NCBI GenBank assembly: GCA_002375765.1
Contig: DFMV01000047.1
Coordinates: 93,611 to 157,610, forward strand
Length of the DNA: 64,000 nt
Reading direction: 5' to 3'
DNA from: Rhizobiales bacterium UBA3584
GTDB taxonomy: Bacteria; Pseudomonadota; Alphaproteobacteria; Rhizobiales; Devosiaceae
Position 1 is the first letter of the stretch. Every line of letters begins with the position of its first letter. Shown here piece after piece: positions 60,337 through 63,311 of this stretch. Below the pieces are notes generated by a model. It was not told where the DNA came from. It was given only the letters and a program-made list of their open reading frames with translations, and did no database searches. The translations under genes were made by a program, and so were the position numbers.

Positions 60337-60747
60337 ATGAAACTGTCGCTCATCTCCGTAATCGTCGGTCTCTCGATGGCAGCACCGGGCGCCGCGCTGG
60401 CCCAGGAGGTCGTGTCGTGCGACCCCCAGTCCATCGCGCAACTTCTCGGCCTTGAGCCCATTCCCGGCTGCGAGGCCGACGTCAGCGACCCGGATGGCGA
60501 AGAGCCCGTCAATGAGCGCCTGACCGGTCTGCAGACCGCGCACGAGGCATCCGGCGGACGCTCGACCGAGGCCCTCGAGCATGCCAACGCCATGAGCGGT
60601 GGTGCTGTGCTGGCCGCCCATATGAATGGCGATGACGATGATGATGATGATGATGAGGAAGAAGAAGAGGTCGAACTCGAGGAGGAGGACGACGACGAGA
60701 ATGAAGGTCGCGGCCGGCCCGAAGATGCCGGTCGGGGCCGTCCCTGA
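60337..60747 (+). CDS. Secreted acidic protein with poly-Asp/Glu tail
   Basis: 136 residues. Signal peptide about 1-23 (cleavage after ALAQ). The middle (24-95) has two cysteines (28, 45) and LEPIPGCEADVSDPDGEEP. The C-terminal 40 residues are a run of eight Asp, then Glu, then mixed Asp/Glu, then GRGRPEDAGRGRP. The Asp run is coded by GAT/GAC repeats (about 60630-60655). It is probably a periplasmic or surface cation-binding protein. No family is recognised. It is divergent from the PepSY/two-component operon. Confidence 0.75.
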   Translation: MKLSLISVIVGLSMAAPGAALAQEVVSCDPQSIAQLLGLEPIPGCEADVSDPDGEEPVNERLTGLQTAHEASGGRSTEALEHANAMSGGAVLAAHMNGDDDDDDDDEEEEEVELEEEDDDENEGRGRPEDAGRGRP

Positions 60748-60773
60748 TCCTCGCACGCACAAAGCCCGGATAT

Positions 60774-60798
60774 CGAACGCGGTGAAACGCCGCGTTCG
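60774..60798 (+). terminator. Hairpin after the acidic-protein gene
   Basis: CGAACGCGG (60774-60782) pairs with CCGCGTTCG (60790-60798), 27 bases after the stop. No T tract follows, so it is a weak terminator candidate. Confidence 0.45.
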
Positions 60799-60889
60799 GT
60801 GCCCCTCCCGCTTCGCAAAAGTGGGAATTGTCCGAAATTGCCGTGGCCGGTGTCCCCGACCCCTGTCATTTTCTGCAGACCATCGGTAA

Positions 60890-63311
60890 TTGCCAAGATT
60901 CGGGATCAAATTTTTGCACGGACCTTTCCACCGCTTTGCGAAGCTCTCATCGCTGGTTGGCCTGTGCATTGCCCTCGCCGGGTGTGGTGGGGGGAGCAAT
61001 GGCGGCGGCGGATCAGCGGATTCCAATCTTCCTCAGCCCGATTATTCCAATGACTGGGTCAGCGCCTCGGTCGCCCACACCTTCGACACGGTGCAAGCCG
61101 CTCAGATACGCAACTCCTCCCGCTTTCAGGGTGTCGATGCCGCTATCAGCGGCGGGGGGGTCGAACCAGTCCCATCCTTATGAACTCGCAAGGCTCGACC
61201 TTGTGCTCTCGGGCAACTGGACTGGAGCGGGCCAGCGCGTCGCCGTGGTTGACGACGGATTCCGCACGACCCATCAGGAATTTGCGGGCACCGACATCGT
61301 TGCAAACGGCAACATTGCGGTCGCCGGAGGTTCCTCGCACGGCACCCACGTCGCGGCCCTGATTGCCGGCAGCGACGATCAGGGGTCCATGATGGGGTTC
61401 GCCCCCGATGCCGATTTGCATCTCACAAGCTATCTCGATGACAGCAGCCGCACCGGCATCGATCTCGACAAACTCGCCGCTGCGACCGCCGAAGCCGCCA
61501 GCCTCGATGCCGTCGCCCAGAACAATTCCTGGGGTCTGCTCTATACGCCACCGGGCGACCCCACGCGCGAACTCCTCGTGACCGATGTGCGCGATCATAT
61601 GACTTTGAATGGCTCGACCGTCGCGGAGGCTTTTGCCGGCCTGGCCGGGGGAACCCAGGCCGCCTGGAGCACCTATTTCGATGAACTCGAAGCCTTCCAG
61701 TCCAGCGGTGTGATCGTTTGGGCGATGTCCAATGACGACACCCTGGCCGTCAACGACGCGTCCAGCGCACTGCCACTGTTCATCCCCGAGCTCGATGCGT
61801 GGATTGCCGTGGGAAACGGACTGTTCCAGACAAACAGCGCCAACGAGATCACCAGCGCCTCACGCCTCTCTGCCGCCTGCGGCGAGATGGCGAGCCAGTG
61901 CCTGTTCGCCGATGGAACCACACGCTCGGCGGGAGTTTCCAGCGATACCTCCTATGGGCTGGGCACGGGGACCTCGTTCGCCGCTCCCCAGGTTTCCGGG
62001 GCGGTTGCCATAATGGCTCAGGCTTTCCCCTCGCTCTCACCGCAGGAATGGACCAAGCGCCTTCTGGCGACTGCCTATTCCGATTTTGTCGATTTCGCCC
62101 AGGACGGCACCGTCAATTTCGGTAGCGGCATCGTCAGGGCCTATTCGGATGAATGGGGCATGGGCGTGCTCGATATAGCTGCGGCGCTCAGCCCGGTGGA
62201 CGGCGTATCGCTGGTTAATGGCCGCTCACTCGACAGCGCCGAGCGCACGACGCTCGCCGGCGCGGCGCTGGTTTCCGGGGCGGCCTATGGCAACGCCACG
62301 CGCCGGGCATTGTCGGGCATGGACATCGCTGTTTTCGATGGCCTCGATACGCCCTTTCTGGTGCCCGCCGAAACCTTTGCCATAGCCGCCGATTCCGGTC
62401 CGGAGCGGCCGCACGCCCTGCCGCTTTTCGGCGACAGTTCCGTCGTCGACGCCCTGGCCGTCAGTGGAAGCGACCGCCAGTCGGGACAAACCACATTCGG
62501 GACAAGCACATATCGCCTGACCGTGGCAGCCCTGGGCGGCGCGGAAATTGTCTCATCCTCTCGCGGTTTGAGCAGCCCGGCCGCGATGACCGGATCGCTC
62601 GCTTCGCTTTCAGGCCGTGGCGCGGGGATGGTCGGGCAGGTTGAAGCCGGACCATTGACCGTTGAGCATTACGGGTTTGTTTCCAGTCACGCGACTCTGT
62701 CGGAAAGCGCCGTGGGAGGGGTTGGCGCGGCGCTGGGCCTCGATCTGGGCGCGATCGGCCTCAAGGCTTCCTTGCTGACCGCCCAGGAACAGGGCGGGGT
62801 TCTCGGCCTTTCCGGTTTCGGCCTGATGGGAGCGCCATCCGGCGCGGCCATTAATTCGGCCGCCTTGTCCAGCCAACTCGAAATTGGGGCCGGGAGCATG
62901 ATTTTTGCCGGCCTTGAGACAGGCACCGCTGTTGCCGAAGCCGGCTCAGGCTATGTGACCGCAATGGATAACCTGACCTTTTCAGCTTTTCAGGTCGGGC
63001 TGTCGACGGCGAATGTTCTGGGCGACGCCGATCAGCTGACCTTTGCCATCTCCCAGCCCCTGCGGCTCGAAACGGGCGCCGTCGACTTCACCCTGCCGGT
63101 CGGGCGCACACAGGATGGCGCGGTTGTTATGGCCGACCATCGCGCCACCCTGGCCCCGGCCGGACGCCAGATCGACCTCGGGCTGCGCTACCAGATTGCC
63201 CTGGAAACCGAAGCGGAACTGGCGTTCGGTGCGGTGGTCAGTCATGACGCGGGCCATATAGGGGGCGCCACCAACGCCGTATTCGGCGGGCAGCTTCGCG
63301 GGCGTTTCTGA
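60890..63311 (+). CDS. Subtilisin-like (S8) lipoprotein protease with barrel-like C-terminus, split by a frameshift at G7
   Basis: Two frames together make one protein. Frame A (from TTG 60890 or TTG 60914 to a stop at 61181) encodes a lipoprotein signal with lipobox LAGC, a Gly/Ser linker and NSSRFQGVDAAISGGG. Frame B continues from 61161 as SNQSHPYELARLDL. Removing one G from the run 61154-61160 joins them in frame. In frame B the S8 catalytic residues are all present: Asp (codon 61251, VAVVDDGF), His (61338, SSHGTHVAALIAG) and Ser (61974, GTSFAAPQVSGA). The end, about 63000-63311, is beta-rich and finishes in Phe, like autotransporter barrels. The shift may be a sequencing error, a pseudogene, or phase variation. 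Confidence 0.82.

What the first reader, a model, noticed from the sequence alone, without database searches (positions are those of the whole stretch)
61154..61160. Seven-G run splits a secreted subtilisin-like lipoprotein: possible phase variation
The lipoprotein signal and linker are in one frame, and the intact S8 catalytic domain in another, meeting exactly at a run of seven G. One G fewer restores a single long protein. Homopolymer tracts near the start of surface-protein genes are the usual form of on/off contingency switches, and this one follows the signal sequence of an exposed protease.
Basis: partly seen in the sequence, partly recalled or inferred. Interest (0 to 1): 0.75.

Follow-up and report, generated by a model that had tools for sequence, protein, structure and literature searches.

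The report
Strain-specific frameshift in surface protease
In this genome of a Pelagibacterium bacterium, one extra G in a short run of Gs throws a cell-surface protease gene out of frame, while a same-species genome and other relatives carry an intact copy; it looks like an ordinary one-off mutation, or possibly an assembly error, rather than a built-in on/off switch.

Summary
In detail: seven G at 61154-61160, lipobox signal and linker in one frame, a complete S8 protease domain in another. The genus is Pelagibacterium. A complete same-species genome (G061) differs over 4,347 bases by one substitution, one 6-base repeat slip and this single G; it has six G and one 806-codon frame. The intact protein looks like a NalP/SphB1-type subtilisin autotransporter lipoprotein.

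A phase-variation switch is weakly supported. The run is short, not over-represented, and absent in the nearest sister species (GGC GGC GGC), although a more distant species has six G. Of 105 G/C runs of six or more compared between the two strains, only this one differs in length; 5 of 5 comparable 8-10-base tracts are identical. mutS and mutL are open.

Best reading: a recent one-strain slippage frameshift in a dispensable gene (7 of 13 genus genomes have it; apparently broken in 4 of 25 family copies). Main rival: an assembly error, since 13 of 15 one-base indels between the assemblies are insertions in this one, 7 of them beside an N gap; the window's contig has no N. A real switch keeps about 10%.

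The parts
60890..61183 (+). Upstream reading frame: signal, lipobox and linker, ending in a stop after the G run (97 aa from TTG 60890, 89 aa from TTG 60914)
   Evidence: P0001 begins at the codon equivalent to 60914
60974..60985 (+). Lipobox LAGC, Cys codon 60983-60985
   Evidence: sequence; the Cys column is kept in at least 90% of 40 aligned relatives
61154..61160 (+). Run of seven G; six in the same-species genome G061
61161..63311 (+). Downstream reading frame: protease and C-terminal region, open to the stop at 63309-63311
   Evidence: the frame is also open upstream, back to 60828 from the first start codon
61224..62093 (+). Peptidase S8 domain (PF00082); catalytic Asp 61251, His 61338, Ser 61974
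   Evidence: PF00082 92.5 bits; columns invariant in 40 relatives; triad assignment recalled
62610..63308 (+). C-terminal strand-rich region, probable outer-membrane beta-barrel, ending in Phe
   Evidence: model of the intact relative P0001, pLDDT 87.8, about 12-13 long strands; final Phe kept in at least 90% of 40; no sequence-family match

Best explanation
The gene encodes a NalP/SphB1-like subtilisin autotransporter lipoprotein. In the lineage of this genome, slipped-strand replication lengthened a short run of G from six to seven. Ribosomes that start at the lipoprotein signal now stop at 61181-61183 and leave an 89-97 aa stub, so neither protease nor barrel is exported. The allele is recent (no other decay seen) and the gene is dispensable. 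It is a one-off loss-of-function allele that could revert like any homopolymer indel but lacks the signs of a maintained switch. Shown: the frames, the run lengths in two genomes, intact relatives, the stability of other runs. Inferred: slippage as the cause, loss of export, dispensability, no selection for switching.
For: G061: one frame, six G, otherwise nearly identical. P0001, P0002 and the genus orthologs are intact. Sister species GGC GGC GGC TCC, P. luteolum GGG GGC GGG GAC. Only length difference among 105 G/C runs of six or more; 5 of 5 tracts of 8-10 identical. mutS and mutL open in both genomes. No N in this contig. Patchy gene: 7 of 13 genus and 24 of 136 family genomes; 4 of 25 family copies apparently broken. 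Six-base G:C runs are common indel sites in mutator Pseudomonas lines (PMC4702332 passages).
Against: No reads, so an error is possible: 13 of 15 one-base indels are insertions in this assembly, another +G splits an ORF that is open in G061 (C5:19193), the site lies 2.8 kb from the contig end, and two of the three small indels of the contig lie 517 bases apart. For a switch: P. limicola has six G at the site, and six-base tracts are phase-variable elsewhere (bvgS C6, PMC1891110). The three other broken family copies may be draft errors.
Confidence: 0.53

Rival explanations
1. Assembly or consensus error: the strain really has an intact run and the gene works.
For: 13 of 15 one-base indels against G061 are insertions in this assembly; 7 lie in 374 bases beside an N gap on C28 and one about 300 bases after a gap in L066; estimated completeness is 92.77 against 100 for G061 at about equal size. 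The site is 2.8 kb from the contig end, and a 6-base repeat difference lies 517 bases away.
Against: No N in this contig and only one one-base indel in 157,099 columns; other G/C runs agree in length (1 of 105 differs; 5 of 5 longer tracts equal), so homopolymer miscalling is not general; at C5:26741 it is G061 that has the shorter frame.
Confidence: 0.34
2. Phase variation: the run flips between six (on) and seven (off) often enough to be a selected switch for a surface protease, as in NalP.
For: Both states are seen in two strains of one species; the protein layout matches NalP, whose poly-C tract switches it (PMC5472700); sphB2 of Bordetella has a variable coding tract (PMC1891110 table; that sphB2 is a subtilisin-like autotransporter is recalled); bvgS C6 is called phase-variable there; P. 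limicola has six G at the site.
Against: Short run; tracts of 8 or more were the predominantly variable ones in N. meningitidis (PMC5084427) and the Bordetella screen took C/G tracts above 8. Not over-represented; absent in the nearest species and in P. luteolum; tracts of 8-10 are stable between these strains; mismatch-repair genes open.
Confidence: 0.1
3. Recoding or an internal start: the seven-G gene still gives a protease, by ribosomal or transcriptional slippage, or as a cytosolic form from ATG 60999.
For: The downstream frame is open across the upstream region and has candidate starts, among them ATG 60999 behind a Shine-Dalgarno-like GGGGGGAG.
Against: G061 and the other intact relatives need no frameshift; the run is absent in the nearest species; a +1 shift would be needed, which is rare in bacteria (recalled).
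Confidence: 0.03

Closest known systems
NalP of Neisseria meningitidis (phase-variable subtilisin autotransporter lipoprotein; PMC5472700 passages)
   Same: Lipobox, subtilisin-like protease and probable C-terminal barrel; a homopolymer in the coding region
   Different: NalP has a poly-C tract with about half of strains on; here the run is only 6-7, is not conserved and was seen in two alleles in two genomes
Subtilisin-like autotransporters, group 15: SphB1, Ssp, EprS, fusolisin (PMC9289746 and PMC9977779 passages)
   Different: All NCBIfam scores are far below cut-off; that review's passages place the group mainly in beta- and gamma-proteobacteria, this one is alphaproteobacterial
Spontaneous frameshifts at six-base G:C runs (PMC4702332 passages)
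   Same: One-base insertion in a six-base G run
   Different: Those data come from mismatch-repair-deficient lines; mutS and mutL are open here

Membership tests
Homopolymer contingency (phase-variable) locus | Tract longer than chance and of a length usually seen to vary (about 8 or more) | tested here: not met
   Seven here, six in G061; 4 G/C runs of seven or more against about 36 expected in the contig. Shorter exceptions exist (bvgS C6)
Homopolymer contingency (phase-variable) locus | Tract kept in related species | tested here: not met
   Of three other species with a readable site, two have no run (GGC GGC GGC; GGG GGC GGG), one has six G (P. limicola); the site was not read in the remaining orthologs
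Homopolymer contingency (phase-variable) locus | On and off states both occur in the species | tested here: inconclusive
   Seven G (split) here and six G (one frame) in G061, one genome each; P0001 intact, DNA not seen
Homopolymer contingency (phase-variable) locus | Switching within a clonal population | not testable with these tools
   No reads or colonies
Subtilisin autotransporter lipoprotein (NalP/SphB1 type) | S8 domain with catalytic triad | tested here: met
   PF00082 92.5 bits; Asp, His and Ser columns invariant in 40
Subtilisin autotransporter lipoprotein (NalP/SphB1 type) | N-terminal lipobox in frame with the protease | tested here: not met
   Not met in the window's own allele (other frame); met in G061 and in 18 of 25 family copies, 3 more unchecked
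Subtilisin autotransporter lipoprotein (NalP/SphB1 type) | C-terminal beta-barrel translocator | tested here: inconclusive
   Model shows about 12-13 long strands and a final Phe; no Pfam match and only insignificant PDB sequence matches; barrel-only model failed (pLDDT 27.6)
Subtilisin autotransporter lipoprotein (NalP/SphB1 type) | Surface export and cleavage of other surface proteins | not testable with these tools
   Needs experiment

The most novel reading that the evidence does not exclude
A free-living Pelagibacterium switches a NalP-like surface protease on and off by slippage of an unusually short G6/G7 run, so that NalP-style phase variation exists outside host-associated bacteria and works at a run length usually thought too short.
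Probability: 0.08. Interest if true: 0.5.

Novelty: new member of a known kind. Interest (0 to 1): 0.15.

Why it matters
If it were a switch, it would extend phase variation of surface proteases to a presumably free-living bacterium and to very short runs. As it stands it mainly shows how to judge such calls: comparing all homopolymers with a same-species genome separates a single frameshift from a hypervariable tract system.

Tried and rejected
Hypermutation through lost mismatch repair: mutS (911-codon frame) and mutL (615) are open in both genomes. A general homopolymer problem in the assembly: not seen, though insertions near N gaps are. RNA element at the junction: no Rfam match at gathering score in 60700-61400. 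Barrel-only prediction from two sequences failed, so the barrel was not searched on its own; the lists shown for the whole model are subtilase-type proteases, which says nothing about the barrel. Frame-wise GC3 did not sharpen the junction. The scan of genome contigs gave P. luteolum and one remote hit; records near the window's genome may be left out there. Left out of the tract comparison: four G000 tracts whose flanks found no match in G061, one G061 tract with only a partial 56-base match on C4 (not followed), and one pair broken by an N gap. Alignment blocks under 1,500 bases, or under 1,000 bases or below 97% or 95% identity, were dropped before counting. Literature: searches were seen as listings (15 of 153 papers listed; others listed per longer list); passages of PMC5472700, PMC5084427, PMC4702332, PMC9289746 and PMC9977779 and passages plus part 1 of 2 of section 6 of PMC1891110 were read. 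No listed title concerned this gene family in Pelagibacterium or Devosia.

Full report
What is there. The window (G000:C32:93611-157610) carries seven G at 61154-61160. Upstream, a frame from TTG 60890 or 60914 encodes a hydrophobic signal with lipobox LAGC and a Gly-rich linker and stops at 61181-61183. Downstream, another frame holds a complete S8 domain (PF00082, 92.5 bits) and runs to the stop at 63309-63311.

Comparison. A genus search finds the gene in 7 of 13 genomes, this one included. One is a complete genome of the same species, G061. Over 4,347 bases around the gene it differs by one substitution, one 6-base GAT slip in the preceding ORF and one G: six G instead of seven, and a single open frame of 806 codons. 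P0001, 99% identical, is intact and reads GGGA where G061 reads GGGS; its DNA was not seen. So seven is the derived, split state, and the run is mostly not conserved.

Is the extra G typical of this assembly or species? In the window's contig, 157,099 alignment columns in three blocks against G061 hold 66 SNPs and three indels (15, 6 and 1 base); the block boundaries mark two larger differences that are not in that count. The SNPs are 37 transitions and 29 transversions; by a rough ORF are synonymous, 40 not, none makes a stop, 5 are intergenic. Of 33 G/C runs of six or more there, this is the only one that differs in length. A second comparison (eleven stretches given, ten aligned; L073 had not been probed, and L077 found no match) covers 162,679 bases with 715 SNPs and 3 one-base indels. 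A third (it repeats five of those stretches) covers 393,079 with 635 SNPs, 12 one-base indels and one of 3 bases; its 72 G/C runs of six or more show one substitution and no length change. Counted once each there are 15 one-base indels: 13 insertions and 2 deletions in this genome. Seven sit in 374 bases next to an N gap on C28, one about 300 bases after a gap in L066; the window's contig has no N. One further +G (C5:19193) splits a minus-strand ORF that is open in G061; at C5:26741 the longer frame is in this genome instead. There are 11 G runs of eight or more here and 7 in G061 (counted from the rows); the five pairs that could be compared have equal length, 8 to 10 bases.

Reading. Homopolymer lengths agree almost perfectly, so general homopolymer miscalling is unlikely; yet insertions lean to this assembly and no reads are held, so an error at this one site stays possible. 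The same stability speaks against a species that uses short G runs as switches. In N. meningitidis tracts of eight or more were the predominantly variable ones, though a C5/C6 case is mentioned (PMC5084427 passages); the Bordetella screen took C/G tracts above eight while naming bvgS C6 as phase-variable (PMC1891110). In mutator lines of P. aeruginosa six-base runs took 40.7% of indels and 96.3% were in G:C runs; the authors note that such runs could act as switches (PMC4702332). mutS and mutL are open here.

Dispensability. In the family, 24 of 136 genomes have the gene at E 1e-40, 25 copies in all. Eighteen have a lipobox-like motif and the protease in one frame, three are whole in one frame with the lipobox unchecked, and four are apparently broken: this one, G091 (one in-frame TGA), G107 and G135 (frame change). 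The last three may be draft errors and were not checked further.

Verdict. Likeliest is a recent one-strain frameshift in a dispensable autotransporter protease gene (0.53), then an assembly error (0.34), a switch (0.10), and recoding or an internal start (0.03). Interest is low.

Noticed in passing
window 60631-60656: A (GAT)n repeat in the preceding acidic ORF (60337-60747) is 6 bases longer than in G061, in frame; it lies 517 bases from the G run, so two of the three small indels of the contig are neighbours.
   Followed up: partly
window 60985-61001: The Gly codons after the lipobox form a Shine-Dalgarno-like GGGGGGAG just before ATG 60999, which is in the protease frame of this allele; probably chance.
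   Followed up: partly
L132:40-514 (G000:C28:20040-20514): Seven one-base insertions in 374 bases next to an N gap split a 1303-codon frame of G061: a poor assembly patch.
   Followed up: partly
L069:19193 (G000:C5:19193): One extra G splits a minus-strand ORF that stays open in G061; a second possible frameshift of the same kind.
   Followed up: partly
L089:1501 (G061) and L081:1501-1672 (G000:C34): A 13-G tract in G061 coincides with a scaffold gap between 11 and 12 G in the window's genome; a better place to look for an unstable tract.
   Followed up: partly
G008:C1:2930387-2930408: The sister species has a run of 22 G on the minus strand; a candidate contingency tract.
   Followed up: no
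L086:1501 and L090:1501: A 10-G tract of equal length in both strains lies inside a 428-codon frame (looks like glycerate kinase, recalled), so long G runs here need not be switches.
   Followed up: partly
L047, L062, L063: Copies of the protease gene in three other genomes of the family carry an in-frame TGA or a frame change.
   Followed up: partly
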